64,000 nt of DNA from the NCBI RefSeq assembly GCF_024343775.1, contig NZ_RJUF01000019.1, positions 1 through 64,000 of the forward strand, written 5' to 3'. The position numbers and the translations under genes are program-made. This stretch comes from Lacihabitans soyangensis. GTDB lineage: Bacteria; Bacteroidota; Bacteroidia; Cytophagales; Spirosomataceae. Under the pieces are notes generated by a model, which saw only the letters and a program-made list of their open reading frames with translations, was not told the DNA's origin and ran no database searches. Positions 1-6,631 of this stretch are shown here, one piece after another; the first letter of the stretch is position 1; every line of letters starts with the position of its first letter.

Positions 1-726
1 TCGTCACAATTTGGCATCAAGCATTATTGCACCATAGGATTGAACTCAAGAGAAGCCAACAACGAAGCTCTTGCTGAGGAAGTTATGGAAATCTTGCCTT
101 TATTTTTATACAAAGAAGGTGTGGTAGGCGTTGGAGAAATTGGCTTTGACGACCAAACCGCTGCAGAGGAAAAATATTACCGTCAGCAGTTAGAAATGTC
201 AAAAGAGGCTGGCTTACCTGTGCAAGTACACACGCCGCATAGAGACAAAAAGAAAGGAACAGAATTGAGCATGTCCATTGCCTTGGAGCACGCCATTGAC
301 CCAGGAATGGTAATCATCGACCATAACAATGAAGAAACCGTGGAGAGTGTTCTGGACAAAGGATTTTGGGCGGCATTTACCATTTACCCTTTCACTAAAA
401 TGGGTAATGAACGCATGGTAGAACTCGTAAAAAAGTATGGGCCAGAACGAATCATGATAAATTCTGCTGCAGACTGGGGTATAAGCGATCCATTGGCAGT
501 GCCAAAAACAGCCGCCTTGATGAAAATCAGGGGAATTTCAGATGAAGCTATAAAAATGGTTTGCTACCAAAACGCCATTGATGCCTTTGCTCAAAGTGGA
601 CAAATAAATGTGGCGGACTTCGAGACACCACAAGTAATCGATCAAAGTCTAAAATTCAATGGAAATACCGTTTTAAGAGGCGGACAGATTCCGAGAGTGG
701 ACAAAAATTCTATTTTTATTAGCTAA
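1..726 (+). CDS. eboB: EboB, TatD-like metal-dependent hydrolase (5' end outside window)
   Basis: The reading frame is open from base 1, so the gene begins before the window; the first TTG at 40 is internal. The visible 241 codons are the C-terminal part of a TatD-like TIM-barrel hydrolase. Candidate metal ligands are visible: Glu in GEIGFD, His residues in QVHTPH, His in IIDHNNE and Asp in SAADWG, in the order expected of an amidohydrolase/TatD barrel. It is followed after 7 bp by a UbiA gene and then by eboD-eboE-eboF homologues, which identifies it as EboB rather than the housekeeping DNase TatD. In cyanobacteria the ebo genes are linked to moving scytonemin precursors to the periplasm; the substrate of EboB itself is unknown. 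eboA would be expected just upstream, outside the window. Confidence 0.85.
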   Translation, partial: SSQFGIKHYCTIGLNSREANNEALAEEVMEILPLFLYKEGVVGVGEIGFDDQTAAEEKYYRQQLEMSKEAGLPVQVHTPHRDKKKGTELSMSIALEHAIDPGMVIIDHNNEETVESVLDKGFWAAFTIYPFTKMGNERMVELVKKYGPERIMINSAADWGISDPLAVPKTAALMKIRGISDEAIKMVCYQNAIDAFAQSGQINVADFETPQVIDQSLKFNGNTVLRGGQIPRVDKNSIFIS

Positions 727-733
727 GTATATT

Positions 734-1615
734 TTGAACATAAAAGCATATCTTCAACTCTGTCGCCCCGCCAATATCATCACAGCTATTGCCGATATTT
801 TGGCAGGAGTAGCAATAGCGAGTTTTGCGACTCCATTAACCGAAATAAATCCGTTTGGGGTAATACTTTTATGTATTTCTACTATTGGTCTGTACGGTGG
901 CGGAATAGTTTTTAATGATATTTTTGATTTAGAATTAGATAAAATCGAGCGGCCTGAAAGAGCAATTCCCAGTGGAAGGATAAGCTTAAGAAATGCCTAT
1001 ATTTTCGGAACTGTGCTTTTGTTAATAGCAATTATTTCCGCTTTTTCGAATGGTAGTTTAAGTGGAATCATCGCAACATTGATCGCAATCTCAGCCCTTG
1101 TTTATGACAAATACGGAAAACATCATTCGTTTTTGGGACCGATTAATATGGGTCTTTGTCGTGGTGGAAATCTGATTTTAGGGATGTCTATAGTTGCCAA
1201 TACGGTTTCCGAATGGTGGTGGTTGGGAATTTTACCAGTCTGTTACATAGCAGCCATCACAATCATAAGCAGAGGTGAAGTGCATGGTGGCAACAAAAAC
1301 ACCCTATATTTTGCTGGTTTATTATACATAATGGTTAGTATTTCACAATTAACTATTGCTTACAAACTCGATAACCTCTTGATAACCTTAGCTTTTGTTG
1401 CAATTCATATTTATTTGATTTTCAAGTCATTACTTAAAGCTATTTCGAACCCGATTGGACCAAATATTAGCAAGGCTGTTAAGGCTGGAGTATTGGCTCT
1501 AATCGTGATGGACGCGGCCTGGGTGAGTGTTTCAGGCAATTTTGTTATTGCACTTTTTGTACTAATTTTACTACCGATATCGATAAAACTAGCAAAAGTT
1601 TTTGCTGTTACGTAG
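734..1615 (+). CDS. eboC: EboC, UbiA-family prenyltransferase
   Basis: A 293-residue polytopic membrane protein of the UbiA family, which transfers prenyl chains to small acceptors in the membrane. The first Asp-rich motif is clear, NDIFDLELD near residue 62, followed by a polar loop RPERAIPSG; a weaker second acidic motif is in the LVYDKYGKHH segment. Most of the remaining sequence is hydrophobic helices. The start is TTG at 734, eight bases after the eboB stop, so the two genes are probably co-transcribed and translationally coupled. No menaquinone or haem biosynthesis genes flank it; position in the ebo order B-C-D-E-F gives the name. The acceptor and the prenyl donor are not known and cannot be read from the sequence. 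Confidence 0.88.
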   Translation: MNIKAYLQLCRPANIITAIADILAGVAIASFATPLTEINPFGVILLCISTIGLYGGGIVFNDIFDLELDKIERPERAIPSGRISLRNAYIFGTVLLLIAIISAFSNGSLSGIIATLIAISALVYDKYGKHHSFLGPINMGLCRGGNLILGMSIVANTVSEWWWLGILPVCYIAAITIISRGEVHGGNKNTLYFAGLLYIMVSISQLTIAYKLDNLLITLAFVAIHIYLIFKSLLKAISNPIGPNISKAVKAGVLALIVMDAAWVSVSGNFVIALFVLILLPISIKLAKVFAVT

Positions 1616-1690
1616 GATCTTAAATAAAAGAAATTAAATATTCTAAATATAATGAACTAATGGCTCCTTAAAATCATCAAATAGTCCGTT

Positions 1691-1750
1691 CTGAAAATTT
1701 GATGTAGAGTTAAGTTCATTAAACACTCAAAAATTAAATCAAATTTTCAG
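1691..1750. repeat. 13-bp perfect inverted repeat with 34-nt loop
   Basis: CTGAAAATTTGAT at 1691-1703 is repeated as its exact reverse complement at 1738-1750. It lies in the 325-bp gap between eboC and eboD. It could form a stem in RNA or be a binding site; no T-tract follows, so it is not a typical terminator. Confidence 0.7.
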
Positions 1751-1780
1751 AGAGGATTTTATTTGATGAATGTTTTTTTG

Positions 1781-1823
1781 CCTACTTTTTTTCGAAAAAA
1801 AGCAGGTCCCCGCCGGAAAGGCG
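1781..1823. repeat. Palindrome CTTTTTTTCGAAAAAAAG plus small GC hairpin
   Basis: 1785-1802 is a perfect 18-bp palindrome (CTTTTTTTCGAAAAAAAG), flanked by CCT at 1781-1783 and AGG at 1804-1806 so the stem can extend with one mismatch. It is followed at once by a GC-rich hairpin, CGCC-GGAAA-GGCG at 1811-1823. The rest of the 1616-1940 gap is AT-rich with no open gene. The oligo-T half could act as a terminator for eboB-eboC; the composite structure also looks like a dispersed intergenic element. Function is inference. Confidence 0.6.
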
Positions 1824-1940
1824 ACGAATCAAATATAAGGAGTTTATTATTTTGTGTTTGTTTCAGTTTATTTAATAAAACTAAAATTGTGCATTCAAAA
1901 AGAAGTTTAGTCAGGTGATAAAAATTTTATTCAACCATAA

Positions 1941-3089
1941 ATGAAGTCTATAAAACAGGCCTTTGAGGTTCCGTTCAGTTTTGATATTATTTTTACTGAG
2001 AACCTTTTTTCTACTGATAATCAAGAATTTAAAAACTTTCTTGAAAACTTTGGGAACCGCAGTTTCCATAAAAAAATATTATTTTTAATAGACGCAGGTG
2101 TCGCAGAAAATCATTCCTATCTGCAAGACAACATCCGTGGGTATTTTCAAGAAGTCAATAACATTTCTTTAGTTGATGAAATACTGGTGATGCCTGGTGG
2201 TGAGTTGGTTAAAAATGACCCTCAATATCTTGAAAAAGCACTTTTGGCCATCAATGAACATGGCATAGATCGGCATTCGTTTGTAGCTGCCATCGGTGGG
2301 GGAGCTTTTTTGGACATGGTAGGTTATGCCTCTTGTATTGCCCACCGCGGAGTAAAGCACATTAGAATTCCTACTACTGTTCTTTCTCAAAATGACTCTG
2401 GCGTGGGTGTTAAAAACGGTGTCAATTTTCTTGGTAAAAAGAACTTCCTGGGCACATTTGCTCCGCCAGTGGCCGTGTTCAACGATTCAAATTTCTTAAA
2501 AAGCTTATCGGACAGAGACTGGCGATCTGGAATTTCTGAAGCCGTTAAAGTGGCCTTAATCAAAGACTTATCATTTTTTGAATGGCTTGAAGATAATGCC
2601 CAAGCCATGGCTGATAGAAACAAGGAAGTTATGGGCGAGCAGATTTTCCGCTCAGCCGCACTGCATACCAATCACATTTCAAGCGGTGATCCGTTTGAAT
2701 TAGGTTCAGCCAGACCATTGGATTTTGGTCATTGGGCAGCCCATAAATTGGAGTACTTGACCAATTTCGAAATCCGGCATGGCGAAGCTGTGGCTATCGG
2801 CATAGCCTTGGACTCTGTTTATTCTAAAATACTAGGTCTAATTACCCAAGAAGAGGCAGATAGAATTCTTATTTTGCTCAAAAAACTGGGTTTTATTCTG
2901 TACCATCCAGCACTTGGGGAAAACGACAAATTGAATCTTTGGGAAGGATTAAATGAATTCAGAGAGCATTTGGGAGGCGAATTGACCATAACAATTTTGG
3001 AAAAATTGGGTAAAGGAAAAGAAATACACGAAGTAGATTTTGAAGCCATGAAACAAGCCGTTGATGAGCTCGAAAAATTGAACGTATAA
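1941..3089 (+). CDS. eboD: EboD, 3-dehydroquinate synthase-like sugar phosphate cyclase
   Basis: A 382-residue member of the dehydroquinate synthase/sugar phosphate cyclase fold: NAD-binding glycine motif GGGAFLDMVGYA near residue 118, PTTVLSQNDSGVG, SEAVKVALIKD, a metal-binding FGHWAAH, and RHGEAVAIG with a second metal His. The pattern differs from AroB: AroB has RxxLNxGHTxGHxxE, whereas here it is RPLDFGHWAAHKLE, with Asp in place of the Asn. A housekeeping aroB role is therefore unlikely; the ebo context makes it EboD, probably making a cyclitol-like product. It starts at ATG 1941 after a 325-bp gap with repeats, so it may have its own promoter. Product unknown. Confidence 0.87.
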   Translation: MKSIKQAFEVPFSFDIIFTENLFSTDNQEFKNFLENFGNRSFHKKILFLIDAGVAENHSYLQDNIRGYFQEVNNISLVDEILVMPGGELVKNDPQYLEKALLAINEHGIDRHSFVAAIGGGAFLDMVGYASCIAHRGVKHIRIPTTVLSQNDSGVGVKNGVNFLGKKNFLGTFAPPVAVFNDSNFLKSLSDRDWRSGISEAVKVALIKDLSFFEWLEDNAQAMADRNKEVMGEQIFRSAALHTNHISSGDPFELGSARPLDFGHWAAHKLEYLTNFEIRHGEAVAIGIALDSVYSKILGLITQEEADRILILLKKLGFILYHPALGENDKLNLWEGLNEFREHLGGELTITILEKLGKGKEIHEVDFEAMKQAVDELEKLNV

Positions 3090-3104
3090 TAGAAACAATT
3101 AAAA

Positions 3105-3129
3105 CCTTAGCGTCTTAGCGACCTAGCGG
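3105..3129. repeat. Three near-identical 8-bp units (xCTTAGCG type)
   Basis: CCTTAGCG at 3105-3112, TCTTAGCG at 3113-3120 and ACCTAGCG at 3121-3128 stand in tandem, filling the short gap between eboD and eboE and ending 12 bp before the eboE start. Similar short CTTNGCG runs are familiar to me from intergenic DNA of Bacteroidota, but I cannot count copies here. Confidence 0.7.
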
Positions 3130-3140
3130 TAAAATCAAAT

Positions 3141-4340
3141 ATGAAAACAGCATTTGGCCAACTTAGCTATTGCAGCAATATACATCCGGGAGAAGACTGG
3201 AAAGAGCATTTTTCGGTACTTAAAACCAGTATTCCTGAAATAAAAGCAGCCGTCAGTCCAACGGAACCCATGGGACTCGGACTTAGATTAGCCAATCAAG
3301 CGAGTATAGATTTATCTGAAAATGAGAACTTTGAGGATTTCAAAAATTGGTTAGAAGCTAACGATGTCTACGTTTTTACGATGAATGGATTTCCGTACGG
3401 AAATTTTCATAATGTAGTGGTGAAAGACCAAGTTCATGCTCCTGACTGGACCACCAAAGATCGGGCAGATTACACTATCAGAATGTTTGAATTACTGGCT
3501 AAACTCCTTCCCGAAAATCTAGATGAAGGCGGAATTTCAACATCTCCTCTCTCCTATCGTTTTTGGTGGAATACGCCCGAAAGTTTAGAAAAGGCCACCA
3601 AAGCGGCCACCAAAAACATTTTATTGGTCGTTGATGCTTTAATCGATATTTTTGAGAAAACTGATAAAACGCTACATTTAGACATTGAACCAGAGCCTGA
3701 TGGTATTTTAGAAAATTCCGAGGAATTCATAAATTGGTACAAGGGGTATTTGCTTCCAATGGGCGTCCAACACCTTGCTGGCAAAGGATATTCGACTGAA
3801 GAGGCCACCATACTCATAAAAAAGCATATAACACTTTGCTATGATGTTTGCCATTTTGCAGTTGGCTTTGAAAACCCACAAGACGTTATCGATAAACTTA
3901 ATAATGAAGGACTTAAAGTAGGCAAAATTCAAATAAGTTCAGCTGTAAAAGTAGATTTTTCTGAAAATGCAGAAGAAAAACTAAAAACAATAGCCCAATA
4001 CAATGAGCCCACTTATTTGCACCAGGTGGTGGCTCAGCAAAAAGATGGAAGTTTCCAAAAATTCCCAGATTTAACCGAAGCCATCGCTAGTTTTCATGAA
4101 AATATCAGTGAATGGAGAGTACATTTTCATGTTCCTTTGTTTCTGGAGAATTATGGTTTGCTGGGCTCGACTCAGTCAGATATTGTAGAAACTATCAAAG
4201 TGCATAAAAACAAACTATTTACTCATCATCTTGAAATCGAGACTTACACTTGGGGAGTTTTGCCATCAGAGTTCCAAGCACCTCTTAATGAATCCATTAT
4301 ACGAGAAATCAACTGGGTAAAGGGTCTTCTTAATGGTTGA
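3141..4340 (+). CDS. eboE: EboE, xylose-isomerase-like TIM-barrel protein
   Basis: A 399-residue soluble protein of the sugar phosphate isomerase/epimerase (xylose isomerase-like TIM barrel) type. Acidic and His residues placed at strand ends are consistent with a metal site: LHLDIEPEPDG (around residue 180), CYDVCHFAVGF (around 235) and a late HHLEIETYTW. It has no signal peptide. It starts with ATG 3141, 51 bp after eboD across a small tandem repeat, and is followed by eboF. The ebo order supports the name. Acting with EboD on a cyclic or sugar-derived metabolite is a reasonable inference, but no substrate can be read from the sequence. Confidence 0.85.
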   Translation: MKTAFGQLSYCSNIHPGEDWKEHFSVLKTSIPEIKAAVSPTEPMGLGLRLANQASIDLSENENFEDFKNWLEANDVYVFTMNGFPYGNFHNVVVKDQVHAPDWTTKDRADYTIRMFELLAKLLPENLDEGGISTSPLSYRFWWNTPESLEKATKAATKNILLVVDALIDIFEKTDKTLHLDIEPEPDGILENSEEFINWYKGYLLPMGVQHLAGKGYSTEEATILIKKHITLCYDVCHFAVGFENPQDVIDKLNNEGLKVGKIQISSAVKVDFSENAEEKLKTIAQYNEPTYLHQVVAQQKDGSFQKFPDLTEAIASFHENISEWRVHFHVPLFLENYGLLGSTQSDIVETIKVHKNKLFTHHLEIETYTWGVLPSEFQAPLNESIIREINWVKGLLNG

Positions 4341-4344
4341 ATGA

Positions 4345-4391
4345 ATTAAAGAATGAATGATTATTATTTTGAATGATTCAATGATTGATTA
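4345..4391. repeat. Degenerate GAATGATT repeats with a short palindrome
   Basis: The eboE-eboF gap contains imperfect repeats of AATGA(A/T)T and an inverted repeat TTGAATGATTCAA at 4369-4381. It resembles low-complexity intergenic repeats rather than a terminator: no GC-rich stem and no T-tract. Confidence 0.5.
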
Positions 4392-4425
4392 AACAAGGGT
4401 ATATTTTGGTAAAATATAGAAAGAA

Positions 4426-5799
4426 ATGCAAAAAACAGTTGTAATCGATATAGTGGGATTGAGTACGAGCGTGATAGGTAAGCATACGCCTTTTTTGCAA
4501 AAGTATATTGCCAAAAATAATCTTACCCACATAAAACCCGCATTTCCTGCCGTTACTACTACCGCACAGAGTTGCTACGTGACCGGAAAAACGCCAGCCG
4601 AACACGGAATAGTGGGCAATGGATGGTATGACCACGAGGCCTCAGAAATAAAATTCTGGAAACAATCGAACAAACTGGTGTATGCCGAAAAAATCTGGGA
4701 AGCCGCCAAACGAAAAAATCCTGAATTTACAAGTTCAAAAATGTTTTGGTGGTATAACATGTACTCCTCGGCCGATTTTTCAGTAACACCACGTCCACAA
4801 TATCATTCCGATGGGGTGAAAATGCCTGATTGTTACTCTTACCCCTCAGATTTAAGAGATAAACTCCAAAAGAAGTTTGGGACCTTTCCTTTGTTTAAAT
4901 TTTGGGGACCAGGTGCCAATATTGAATGCTCCAAGTGGATTGCGAATGCTTCTATGGAAGTTGACCGAGAAAACGACCCGACACTAACGCTAATATATTT
5001 GCCGCATTTGGACTATTGCTTGCAGAAATTCGGCACGGATTTCTCTAAAATAGCCAAAGAATTAAACGAAATAGATGCTCTGGCGGAAGAACTGGTCACT
5101 TATTATGAGCAAAAAAATGCCAACATTATTTTGCTTTCAGAATATGGCATAAACAACGTTTCTCGGCCCGTTCATATCAACAGAATTTTAAGAGAAAATA
5201 GCTTAGTGGCCATCAGAGTAGAGGCTGGGCTCGAACTCTTGGATGCCGGAGCCTCAAAAGCCTTTGCGGTAGCTGACCACCAAATTGCCCATATTTATGT
5301 CAATGACCCAAAAGAAAAGGCCCGTGTAAAAAGTATTTTGGAGAAAATAGAAGGTGTAGCCTTGGTAATGGACGAAGCCGAAAAACAGCAACACCACATC
5401 AACCATAAAAGAGCAGGAGATTTTGTACTAATGGCCAAAGCCGACAGCTGGTTTACTTATTATTACTGGAACGACGACAAACTTGCACCCGACTTTGCAC
5501 GAAGCGTAGACATACATAACAAACCCGGCTACGACCCTGTGGAGATGTTCATGAACCCTGCAAATCCTTTCATAAAATTACGGGCAGCCTATAAACTAGC
5601 CAGAAAACTCCTCGGATTTAGATACCGCATGGATGTAATTCCATTGGACGCCACACTCATTAAAGGCTCACACGGCACCTTGGACATTGGCAAAGAATAC
5701 TATCCCGTACTTATAACTAATCAAGCCATTAATCAAAAAGAGATAGCGGCCACAGATGTTTATAATGTAATTTGGCAGAGTGTTTTTGGAGAGGGGTAA
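4426..5799 (+). CDS. eboF: EboF, alkaline phosphatase-superfamily (NPP-like) protein with altered metal site
   Basis: 457 residues of the type I phosphodiesterase/nucleotide pyrophosphatase branch of the alkaline phosphatase superfamily. The first metal Asp (D8 in VIDIVGL) and the Thr nucleophile region (PAVTTTAQ, residues 41-48) are present, as are D196 in LPHLDYCLQKFG and the late H416 in KGSHGT. Other ligands are replaced: the position four after D196 is Gln200 instead of His, and the SDHG motif reads SEYG (E239, Y240). Three of the seven canonical ligands are therefore changed, so activity as a normal two-zinc phosphodiesterase is doubtful. No signal peptide is visible. Last gene of the ebo cluster; its 3' end is partly repeated 0.9 kb downstream. 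Confidence 0.85.
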   Translation: MQKTVVIDIVGLSTSVIGKHTPFLQKYIAKNNLTHIKPAFPAVTTTAQSCYVTGKTPAEHGIVGNGWYDHEASEIKFWKQSNKLVYAEKIWEAAKRKNPEFTSSKMFWWYNMYSSADFSVTPRPQYHSDGVKMPDCYSYPSDLRDKLQKKFGTFPLFKFWGPGANIECSKWIANASMEVDRENDPTLTLIYLPHLDYCLQKFGTDFSKIAKELNEIDALAEELVTYYEQKNANIILLSEYGINNVSRPVHINRILRENSLVAIRVEAGLELLDAGASKAFAVADHQIAHIYVNDPKEKARVKSILEKIEGVALVMDEAEKQQHHINHKRAGDFVLMAKADSWFTYYYWNDDKLAPDFARSVDIHNKPGYDPVEMFMNPANPFIKLRAAYKLARKLLGFRYRMDVIPLDATLIKGSHGTLDIGKEYYPVLITNQAINQKEIAATDVYNVIWQSVFGEG

Positions 5800-5929: not shown

Positions 5930-6151
5930 ATGAACACCATGCGAATTGACATAATAAATCCAAAAGCTGCCAAACTTTTAAGAGACTTGGAGGACATGAA
6001 CCTGATTTCCATTCAAGATTCATCAAAAAAAGGATTTGCAGATGTTCTAAAAAAGCTTCGTTCAAAGGCCAAAGAGGCACCATCATTGGAAGAGATAACT
6101 AAAGAAGTGGAGTTGGTTAGAAGCAAACGTTATGCAGAAAAATCCAACTAG
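5930..6151 (+). CDS. Small antitoxin-like protein of a PIN toxin module
   Basis: 73 residues with no recognised catalytic motif: an N-terminal segment RIDIINPKAAKLLRDLEDMNL (read in two parts) typical of short antitoxins that pair a DNA-binding strand with helices, and a charged C-terminal helix suited to wrapping a toxin. The stop overlaps the start of the downstream PIN-domain frame by 20 bp, the usual arrangement for antitoxin-toxin operons. The start ATG at 5930 was kept; a second ATG two codons later (MRIDIIN) is equally plausible. Function is inferred from size, order and overlap. Confidence 0.65.
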   Translation: MNTMRIDIINPKAAKLLRDLEDMNLISIQDSSKKGFADVLKKLRSKAKEAPSLEEITKEVELVRSKRYAEKSN

Positions 6152-6631
6152 AATCATTATTGACACTAATCTCTGGGTCAGCTTCTTGATATCAAAAGAT
6201 TATTCAAAACTGGACGAAATCATTTTTACCGAAAAAGTTTCGCTAGTTTTTAGCAAAGAATTGCTTGATGAATTTTTGGAAGTGGCACGCAGGCCTAATT
6301 TAGAAGATTTTTTGCTGCAAATGATATTGAGGAAATACTTGAGACTATAGACGAATATGCAGATTTTGTCAAAGTTAAATCTAAAATTGAGCTTTGTAGA
6401 GACCCGAAAGGTAACTTTTTGCTCTCCTTATTAGCTGATGGTAAAGCCGATTATTTACTTACTGGAGATAAAGACTTACTTGATTTAGTCAATTTTGGAA
6501 AGACGAAAATTCTAACAATTTCTCAATTCCTTACAAAGAATAAAAGTTCATATTTCATTCAAGGCTCAAACAGAGTGATAGCCATCGATATTGAGTTTTT
6601 ACAATTTACTCATTACCAATCAAGCAATTAA
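6132..6631 (+). pseudogene. PIN-domain toxin, frameshifted
   Basis: The frame from 6132 reads a clear PIN-domain N-terminus (IIIDTNLWVSFLI, then DEFLEVARRPNLEDF) but leaves the family pattern after codon 60. The correct continuation (AANDIEEILETIDEYADF, then CRDPKGNFLLSLLADGKADYLLTGDKDLL) is in the next frame and is open to 6631. The switch falls on a run of six T at 6308-6313; one more T would restore a single frame of about 167 codons. The four acidic PIN residues (D11, the Glu in DEFLE, the Asp in CRDP, the Asp in GDKD) all survive, so the break is recent, a sequencing error, or slippage. The last ~35 codons are not PIN sequence and derive from an eboF remnant. Confidence 0.75.

What the first reader, a model, noticed from the sequence alone, without database searches (positions are those of the whole stretch)
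1..5799. An ebo (eboB-C-D-E-F) cluster in a gliding-type Bacteroidota
Five genes in the order TatD-like hydrolase, UbiA prenyltransferase, DHQS-like cyclase, xylose-isomerase-like barrel and alkaline-phosphatase-like protein match the ebo set known from cyanobacterial scytonemin work and from scattered bacteria and algal endosymbionts. Its chemistry is unsolved. A prenyltransferase plus a cyclitol-forming enzyme plus a sugar isomerase could make a prenylated cyclitol membrane compound. No pigment genes lie on the visible side, so it is probably not scytonemin in this host.
Basis: partly seen in the sequence, partly recalled or inferred. Interest (0 to 1): 0.8.

Follow-up and report, generated by a model that had tools for sequence, protein, structure and literature searches.

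The report
Ebo cluster and its membrane partner
The window holds most of an already known six-gene bacterial cluster whose product nobody has identified; comparison with other genomes suggests that it makes a lipid with a sugar-like ring and that a small membrane protein, related to an unexplained human protein, belongs to it.

Summary
Window 1-5799 carries eboB (5' end cut by the contig edge), eboC, eboD, eboE and eboF in one direction. The missing eboA lies directly upstream on contig C5, which overlaps the window start by 1134 identical bases. The host is Emticicia-like. In itself this is an ordinary ABCDEF ebo cluster.

Two things came out that I did not find in the papers searched. (1) A TMEM220-family (PF15071) four-helix membrane protein is inherited with ebo: in 241 genomes of the order, 77 have both, 11 only EboE, 10 only TMEM220, 143 neither (phi 0.81; two control families 0.18). 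It is also the immediate neighbour of ebo in 31 of 81 loci, in four arrangements. This genome has it, unlinked. (2) In 6 of 6 actinobacterial plasmid loci examined, myo-inositol-phosphate synthase stands in for EboD, which supports a cyclitol step.

Product and biological role remain unproven.

The parts
1..726 (+). eboB (TatD-like metallohydrolase), 3' 241 codons; the 5' part is on contig C5
   Evidence: whole protein 345 aa in L009; alignment A6: H51, H53, E150, H181, H212, D262 invariant in 21 of 21
734..1615 (+). eboC, UbiA-family intramembrane prenyltransferase (TTG start)
   Evidence: NF035940 406 bits, cut-off 250; first motif N61 D62 x x D65 x x x D69 invariant in 23 of 23
1616..1940 (.). 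eboC-eboD gap holding a dispersed repeat element (roughly 1660-1830), with partial matches at 8 other places in the genome
   Evidence: the gap is 47 and 48 bases in Emticicia L046 and L047
1941..3089 (+). eboD, sugar-phosphate-cyclase family, not the housekeeping 3-dehydroquinate synthase
   Evidence: below the AroB cut-off; an AroB over it is on C11; tree and site residues
3141..4340 (+). eboE, TIM-barrel-type protein of the ebo set
   Evidence: NF035939 505 bits, cut-off 250; A1
4426..5799 (+). eboF, alkaline-phosphatase-fold protein with an altered metal site
   Evidence: PF01663 201 bits; A7 and alignments to solved relatives

Best explanation
It is a complete ABCDEF-type ebo cluster of an Emticicia-like Bacteroidota, with a TMEM220-family membrane protein elsewhere in the genome as its likely seventh part. 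Proposed working: EboD closes a phosphorylated sugar other than the shikimate-pathway substrate into a cyclitol; EboE and EboB rework that ring; EboC prenylates it in the inner membrane; EboA, a nearly all-helical solenoid-like protein, holds partners together; EboF, with a changed metal site, binds or acts on a phosphate-bearing partner in an unusual way; TMEM220 handles the resulting membrane lipid (placing, flipping or using it). The lipid then serves the passage or protection of small molecules at the inner membrane, which would explain the Nostoc transport phenotype. SHOWN: gene content and order, family membership, site residues, the statistical co-inheritance and adjacency of TMEM220, the EboD/MIPS exchange. 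INFERRED: the order of the chemical steps, the product, the role of TMEM220 and of EboF, and the biological use.
For: Cluster membership. EboD is not the shikimate enzyme: a separate AroB (335 bits, cut-off 305) is on C11 while EboD scores 212; 23 of 23 EboD compared carry R-P-L-D-F-G-H and E-F-(R/Q)-E-H where this genome's AroB has K-I-L-N-F-G-H and Q-D-K-K-N. Cyclitol: of 12 plasmid ebo loci, 6 of 6 non-actinobacterial ones have EboD and no MIPS hit, and 6 of 6 actinobacterial ones have MIPS and no EboD hit; MIPS domains confirmed in 3 of 3 tested. Membrane step: EboC's closest solved relative by sequence is digeranylgeranylglyceryl phosphate synthase. TMEM220: 77/11/10/143 in 241 genomes, phi 0.81, against 0.18 for catalase and 0.18 for rhodopsin; by genus 34/4/4/61; immediate neighbour in 31 of 81 loci; 7 positions invariant in 70 of 70 proteins. 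EboA model (of the Emticicia L046 protein): 17 helices, pLDDT 95.
Against: No ebo product is known from the papers seen. The only EboC activity that I saw reported is on aromatic acceptors, best on quinoline acids, not cyclitols (PMC9235831). MIPS keeps the phosphate whereas sugar-phosphate cyclases lose it (recalled), so the two may not make the same compound. Klicki et al. saw no lipid-linked monomer. NCBIfam NF004852, which scores EboD 559 bits (cut-off 333), is named '3-dehydroquinate synthase'. TMEM220 is absent in 11 of 88 EboE+ genomes of the order, several of them near-complete, and in 6 of 24 of the phylum sample, and present in 10 of 153 EboE- ones of the order and 22 of 272 of the phylum sample. 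The control families are weakly associated with EboE too (p 0.006 and 0.007). No TMEM220 hit in the plasmid collection, so the link is shown for Bacteroidota only. In this genome it is unlinked.
Confidence: 0.5

Rival explanations
1. The Ebo proteins form a machine that moves small molecules from cytoplasm to periplasm and make no lipid of their own; the enzyme-like folds are used for binding.
For: In Nostoc every one of five single ebo deletions leaves the scytonemin monomer in the cytoplasm (PMC6282210, first parts of Results and Discussion read). EboF has lost most of its usual metal ligands. The EboA model is a helical, solenoid-like protein, a shape often seen in scaffolds (recalled). A small membrane protein is inherited with the set.
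Against: EboC retains the first prenyltransferase Asp motif and homologues have activity in vitro; EboB keeps all six usual TatD-type metal positions (roles recalled); EboD keeps the usual cyclase residues; a cyclitol-phosphate synthase replaces EboD in actinobacterial loci, which makes most sense if a cyclitol is made.
Confidence: 0.2
2. The cluster makes a prenylated aromatic or quinoline-type secondary metabolite (meroterpenoid).
For: UbiA-297 (EboC) of Maribacter farnesylates six of 14 aromatic acceptors tested, best 8-hydroxyquinoline-2-carboxylic acid and quinaldic acid; the Zobellia and Algoriphagus homologues farnesylate 8-HQA (PMC9235831, section read).
Against: Only aromatic acceptors were tested. 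Replacing its Arg145 left that activity unchanged; this is apparently the Arg at column 143 of my alignment, invariant in 23 of 23 EboC (equivalence inferred from position), so 8-HQA may be a surrogate. Apart from TMEM220 no non-ebo protein cluster recurs in more than 9 of 81 loci; those clusters were not annotated, so quinoline genes were not specifically looked for.
Confidence: 0.12
3. The TMEM220 link is not functional: both families are simply common in the same lineages and lifestyles.
For: Genomes are not independent samples; TMEM220 is unlinked in this genome; 11 EboE+ genomes lack it and 10 EboE- genomes have it; catalase and rhodopsin also associate weakly with EboE (p 0.006, 0.007). 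In 38 neighbourhoods of mostly unlinked copies no partner recurs outside the host's family in more than a few loci.
Against: The genus-level table (34/4/4/61, phi 0.83) and the table without the host's family (49/11/9/143) keep the signal; two control families of like prevalence give phi 0.18 by genome and 0.22-0.29 by genus. In 31 of 31 loci where it occurs in the stretch fetched around ebo it is the immediate neighbour, upstream or downstream, on either strand.
Confidence: 0.2
4. Not an ebo cluster: unrelated housekeeping genes that happen to lie together.
For: EboD resembles AroB and EboB resembles TatD at low stringency.
Against: EboA, EboC and EboE exceed curated ebo cut-offs; order conserved in 69 of 81 loci.
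Confidence: 0.01

Closest known systems
ebo cluster, ABCDEF type (Yurchenko et al. 2016, PMC5133447: Bacteroidetes, Cyanobacteria, Leptospira, eustigmatophyte plastids)
   Same: All six genes, same order, same strand
   Different: A 325-base gap with a dispersed repeat between eboC and eboD; a TMEM220 gene elsewhere in the genome
ebo genes of the Nostoc punctiforme scytonemin locus (Klicki et al. 2018, PMC6282210)
   Same: eboA, B, C, E and F families
   Different: There eboD lies apart and the set serves a scytonemin pathway; scy genes were not searched for here
UbiA-297 / EboC of Maribacter, Zobellia and Algoriphagus (PMC9235831)
   Same: Same ebo-linked prenyltransferase group
   Different: Only aromatic acceptors were tested; the native acceptor is unknown
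Actinobacterial EboA/EboB/EboE/EboF sets with an SCO3242-family prenyltransferase (L202-L207)
   Same: Shared EboA, EboB, EboC-like, EboE, EboF
   Different: Myo-inositol-phosphate synthase plus an extra PF01261 isomerase in place of EboD
TMEM220 family (PF15071), human TMEM220
   Same: This genome's protein at C182:60973-61254 scores 78 bits, cut-off 27
   Different: In the papers seen the human protein is a Golgi-resident hit of a secretion screen (PMC6979480, passages read) and a subject of cancer studies (search listings)

Membership tests
ebo cluster (ABCDEF) | eboA present next to eboB | tested here: met
   EboA_domain 165 bits, cut-off 50, at C5:113893-114315, eboB next. The narrower EboA_family model NF035937 scores 175, below its 320 cut-off
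ebo cluster (ABCDEF) | EboB | tested here: met
   92% and 87% identical to EboB in two Emticicia ebo loci, 65-81% to 18 others; no EboB equivalog appeared in the NCBIfam scan
ebo cluster (ABCDEF) | EboC equivalog | tested here: met
   NF035940 406 bits, cut-off 250
ebo cluster (ABCDEF) | EboD as a clade apart from true DHQS | tested here: met
   AroB model 212 bits, cut-off 305; separate AroB on C11. In the tree own EboD groups with Emticicia EboD (100/100); own AroB, the only DHQS in the tree, is a long outlier whose placement is unsure
ebo cluster (ABCDEF) | EboE equivalog | tested here: met
   NF035939 505 bits, cut-off 250
ebo cluster (ABCDEF) | EboF | tested here: met
   PF01663 201 bits; 82% identical to EboF in two Emticicia ebo loci
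ebo cluster (ABCDEF) | Order A-B-C-D-E-F on one strand | tested here: met
   Across the C5/C19 overlap
ebo cluster (ABCDEF) | Single transcription unit | not testable with these tools
   No expression data; the eboC-eboD gap of 325 bases leaves it open
ebo cluster (ABCDEF) | Role in moving metabolites to the periplasm | not testable with these tools
   Shown in Nostoc (PMC6282210); no such data for this host
Scytonemin biosynthesis locus | scy genes present | not tested
   No scy search was run in this genome
3-dehydroquinate synthase (AroB) | Score over the curated AroB cut-off | tested here: not met
   212 against 305 bits; but NF004852, carrying the DHQ synthase name, is passed at 559 against 333
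Sugar phosphate cyclase superfamily | Metal- and phosphate-site residues kept (roles recalled) | tested here: met
   E200, K203, H264, H268, H280 invariant in 20 of 20 and the same in own AroB
Two-metal phosphodiesterase / NPP family (EboF) | Canonical metal ligands (roles recalled) | tested here: not met
   The ligand positions read V10, Q200, E239, Y240 in 22 of 22; T44, D196 and H416 kept (H416 lies outside the printed alignments)
TMEM220 (own protein on C182) | PF15071 over the gathering score | tested here: met
   78.1 bits, cut-off 27

The most novel reading that the evidence does not exclude
TMEM220-family proteins are the missing membrane component of the ebo pathway in Bacteroidota: a four-helix protein whose near-invariant N-D-x-D and invariant E-x-x-R-E residues, on the same membrane face by topology, act on or carry the prenylated cyclitol made by EboA-F. 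The unexplained human TMEM220, a Golgi protein, would then belong to a family that evolved to handle a polar-headed isoprenoid-type lipid.
Probability: 0.3. Interest if true: 0.85.

Novelty: new member of a known kind. Interest (0 to 1): 0.58.

Why it matters
The ebo cluster occurs in bacteria of several phyla, in algal plastids and in an algal endosymbiont (PMC5133447, PMC6092422), and its product has been unknown since it was named in 2016. The two comparative results make the question testable. One adds a seventh gene that can be deleted in Pedobacter, Chitinophaga or Flavobacteriaceae strains, some of which are workable genetically (recalled). The other narrows the chemistry, because a synthase of known product (myo-inositol phosphate) stands in EboD's place in actinobacterial loci, so inositol-type cyclitols are the first acceptors to try with EboC. 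If the TMEM220 link holds, a human protein without a settled function gains a bacterial pathway to be studied in.

Tried and rejected
Viral contigs: 17 pattern matches to EboE, none a relative. Neighbours other than TMEM220: in 81 loci no other non-ebo protein cluster occurs in more than 9 (these clusters were not annotated). Unlinked TMEM220: 40 regions fetched, 38 with the gene found by my ORF and HMM step (two, L174 and L180, gave none there). A transaldolase-like and an FtsE-like gene (named by the look of the sequence, no family search; clusters of 13 and 14 loci) lie near it; in the printed neighbourhoods they appear in the host's family only, and also in an EboE- genome of the same genus (G491), so I put this down to shared gene order. 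Fold searches: the EboA model has 457 matches at E <= 10 and none at E <= 0.001, with several helical-repeat proteins among the best 50 (fold names recalled); TMEM220 has 60 at E <= 10 and none at E <= 0.001, best E 1.2. EboE has no solved relative at E <= 0.1. TMEM220 in plasmids: no match with one query. The idea that EboD is the genome's only DHQ synthase was rejected. The idea that the 1134-base overlap marks a duplication was rejected (only the two contig ends match). (PF12706) was a probe of the search tool and bears on nothing. Not done: a search for scy genes; a search for MIPS in the Bacteroidota loci; a tree-aware test of the TMEM220 link.
Full report
OBSERVATION. Window 1-5799 holds five ORFs on the + strand: 1-726 (open at the edge), 734-1615, 1941-3089, 3141-4340 and 4426-5799. 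EboC and EboE exceed their curated NCBIfam cut-offs widely (406 against 250 bits, 505 against 250); the other three have the expected Pfam domains. The window is the start of contig C19 of a 5.65-Mb, 198-contig genome. A search of that genome for the EboA domain gave one hit, on C5 (165 bits, cut-off 50), followed by a whole eboB of 345 codons and the start of eboC. The last 1134 bases of C5 are identical to window 1-1134, and the search found no third place. The cluster is therefore complete, A to F, and only the assembly splits it.

HOST. The closest EboE proteins among the 80 named loci are those of two Emticicia (78% and 74%), and own EboD groups with them (100/100). Motility itself was not tested.

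HOW COMMON. EboE is over its cut-off in 24 of 296 Bacteroidota genomes drawn evenly from the phylum and in 88 of 241 of the host's order. In 81 loci (own + the best 80 of a capped scan, with up to 10-kb flanks) the full ABCDEF order on one strand, inserts allowed, is present in 69; the 12 others are EF (L051, L063, L076, L108), DEF (L088, L121), ABCDE (L122), BCDEF (L104, L117), ABDEF (L075), ADEF (L077) and ACDEF (L098), several of them cut by a contig end.

EboD IS NOT THE SHIKIMATE ENZYME. This genome has an AroB over the curated cut-off on C11 (335 bits, cut-off 305), whereas EboD scores 212 against the same model. The NCBIfam model that EboD does pass (NF004852, 559 against 333 bits) bears the DHQ synthase name; Yurchenko et al. 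argue that such labels on EboD are unfounded. In 23 of 23 EboD proteins compared, from Bacteroidota, Deinococcus and Proteobacteria, the stretch before the metal-binding His reads R-P-L-D-F-G-H and the C-terminal stretch E-F-(R/Q)-E-H; own AroB has K-I-L-N-F-G-H and Q-D-K-K-N. That these AroB residues bind DAHP is recalled, not tested. Solved relatives include DHQ synthases, the cyclase 4p53 and 2-deoxy-scyllo-inosose synthase.

AN EXCHANGE THAT POINTS TO A CYCLITOL. EboE was found in 47 plasmid records; I fetched 12 regions. By tblastn at E <= 1e-6, 6 of 6 non-actinobacterial loci (Aureibacter, Deinococcus, Ketogulonicigenium, Salipiger, Azospirillum, Mycetohabitans) hold EboD and no MIPS, and 6 of 6 actinobacterial loci (five Streptomyces, one Nonomuraea) hold MIPS and no EboD hit. 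The order there is MIPS, SCO3242-family prenyltransferase, PF01261 isomerase, EboA, EboB, EboE, EboF. The MIPS domains PF07994 and PF01658 are over their cut-offs in 3 of 3 tested. Two enzymes of unrelated Pfam families that both close a sugar phosphate into a cyclohexane ring thus stand in for each other in one gene set. I take this as the best evidence that I have that EboD feeds a cyclitol to EboC. Against it: MIPS leaves the phosphate on and cyclases of EboD's kind remove it (recalled), so the products may differ; five of the six loci are Streptomyces; 35 of the 47 records were not looked at; and MIPS was not searched for in the Bacteroidota loci. 'Inositol' occurs nowhere in PMC5133447, and a search for papers with at least three of MIPS, UbiA, TatD and sugar phosphate isomerase returned only that paper.

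A SEVENTH PART. Clustering all proteins in the 81 loci gave one non-ebo cluster that stands out: a ~125-aa membrane protein in 31 loci, the next commonest being in 9. Six of six tested are TMEM220, PF15071. In 31 of 31 loci it is the immediate neighbour of the ebo genes: 20 upstream on the + strand, 4 upstream on the - strand, 6 downstream on the + strand, 1 downstream on the - strand; L107, one of the 20, has a second copy 4 genes up. In the six downstream + cases its start lies between 16 bases before and 4 bases after the end of eboF (ORF starts as called by my script). The own locus and the two Emticicia loci lack it there, but this genome carries it on C182 (78 bits, cut-off 27).

CO-INHERITANCE. 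Phylum sample, 296 genomes: EboE 24, TMEM220 40 (39 over cut-off), both 18, EboE only 6, TMEM220 only 22, p = 3.4e-13 by Fisher. Order sample, 241 genomes: EboE 88, TMEM220 87 (86 over cut-off), both 77, EboE only 11, TMEM220 only 10, neither 143; odds ratio 100, p = 3e-39, phi 0.81. The same table for catalase is 36/52/36/117 (phi 0.18, p 0.006) and for rhodopsin 39/49/41/112 (phi 0.18, p 0.007), so a weak background association exists. By genus (103) TMEM220 gives 34/4/4/61, phi 0.83, controls 0.29 and 0.22. Without the host's family it is 49/11/9/143. Fisher p-values ignore relatedness; the genus table, the table without the host's family and the two control families are my only guards. Of the 11 EboE-only genomes three are 62-75% complete (G368, G394, G450), so some absences may be gaps, but others are near-complete. 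The 10 TMEM220-only genomes include one of the host's own genus (G491), five of one genus (g184) and one match below cut-off (G337). The link is shown for Bacteroidota only: no TMEM220 hit was found in the plasmid collection with one query. Of 100 papers naming TMEM220 I saw the best 25, all human or animal work; a search by Pfam accession and full name gave 9, likewise; a combined search listed 10 of 1,635 papers, none of which names TMEM220.

TMEM220 ITSELF. In 70 proteins (linked and unlinked) D22, W28, Y32, E87, R90, E91 and G94 (own numbering) are in 70 of 70, N21 in 69 and D24 in 68. The model, of the Pedobacter protein in L081 (pLDDT 87, pTM 0.77), has four long helices, 2-23, 27-45, 51-70 and 95-121. 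With that topology the N-D-x-D loop and the start of the last helix with E-x-x-R-E face the same side (inference; I did not measure distances). Such an invariant polar set suggests a binding or catalytic site. No solved structure matches at E <= 0.001. Human TMEM220 is reported in the Golgi, and its knock-down disturbs Golgi shape and secretion (PMC6979480, passages read).

OTHER PARTS. EboF: aligned to XacNPP, phosphonoacetate hydrolase and ENPP4, it keeps the nucleophile Thr (T44), D196 and H416, but the positions of four usual metal ligands read V10, Q200, E239 and Y240 in 22 of 22 (ligand roles recalled, H416 lies outside the printed alignments). It is therefore probably not an ordinary two-metal phosphodiesterase. 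EboC: the first Asp motif is invariant in 23 of 23; where UbiA enzymes carry a second Asp-rich motif (recalled) EboC of this window has S-R-G-E-V-H-G, and the profile match to the archaeal relative ends there. Klicki et al. nevertheless describe a predicted site with donor- and acceptor-binding residues. EboB keeps H-x-H, E, H, H, D in 21 of 21 (roles recalled), with AF_1765 as closest solved relative. EboA: nearly all-helical model of the Emticicia L046 protein, pLDDT 95, pTM 0.90; only weak structural matches (best E 0.06), several to helical-repeat proteins, in keeping with the helical-repeat guess of Klicki et al.

LITERATURE ON FUNCTION. In Nostoc all five single ebo deletions leave the scytonemin monomer in the cytoplasm (PMC6282210, first part of Results, first part of Discussion and 'Roles beyond cyanobacteria' read); the authors suggest a lipid carrier. 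The Maribacter EboC farnesylates 8-HQA and quinaldic acid, homologues farnesylate 8-HQA, and the R145A change did not reduce this (PMC9235831, first part of Results and the substrate section read), which makes 8-HQA look like a surrogate acceptor (inference). An ebo operon in an algal endosymbiont is described in PMC6092422 (passages read).

VERDICT. Real, correctly named, and in itself a new member of a known set. What raises the interest is the two comparative results, which I did not find in the papers searched (long listings were seen only in part, and the library lacks most subscription journals and preprints).

Noticed in passing
window 1616-1940: A dispersed repeat with inverted-repeat segments (seen by eye: two AATTTGAT-type arms, CTTTTTTTCGAAAAAAAG) sits between eboC and eboD; partial matches at 8 further places in the genome, 68-86% identical.
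   Followed up: partly
window 5930-6631: Right after eboF: a 73-aa antitoxin-like ORF, then a PIN-toxin-like gene whose reading frame is broken into two ORFs (6132-6350 and 6419-6631); a decayed toxin-antitoxin pair by its look, with no family search run.
   Followed up: no
L202-L207 (Streptomyces, Nonomuraea plasmid records): Actinobacterial ebo sets have myo-inositol-phosphate synthase and an extra xylose-isomerase-like protein in place of EboD; in L202 and L206 a ScyD/ScyE-family protein precedes them and a multicopper oxidase lies near.
   Followed up: partly
C182:60973-61254 of this genome (L156), L158, L176-L188: In the host's family the TMEM220 gene often lies near a transaldolase-like and an FtsE-like gene (by look of the sequence); a transaldolase would make sedoheptulose 7-phosphate, EboD's proposed substrate, but the order was not seen outside the family in the printed neighbourhoods.
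   Followed up: partly
L079, L090, L096 (Chitinophaga); L110, L113: Extra genes inserted within ebo, repeatedly at the eboC-eboD or eboA-eboB junction.
   Followed up: no
G491 (same genus as the host): A near-complete genome of the host's genus gives no EboE match but has TMEM220: a possible recent loss of ebo.
   Followed up: no
G179, G445, G476: EboE is matched in two pieces in different frames; possible broken genes or assembly errors.
   Followed up: no
L198 (Ketogulonicigenium plasmid): ebo genes lie with two Gfo/Idh/MocA oxidoreductases and a sugar-phosphate isomerase, the sort of enzymes used on inositols (use on inositols recalled).
   Followed up: no
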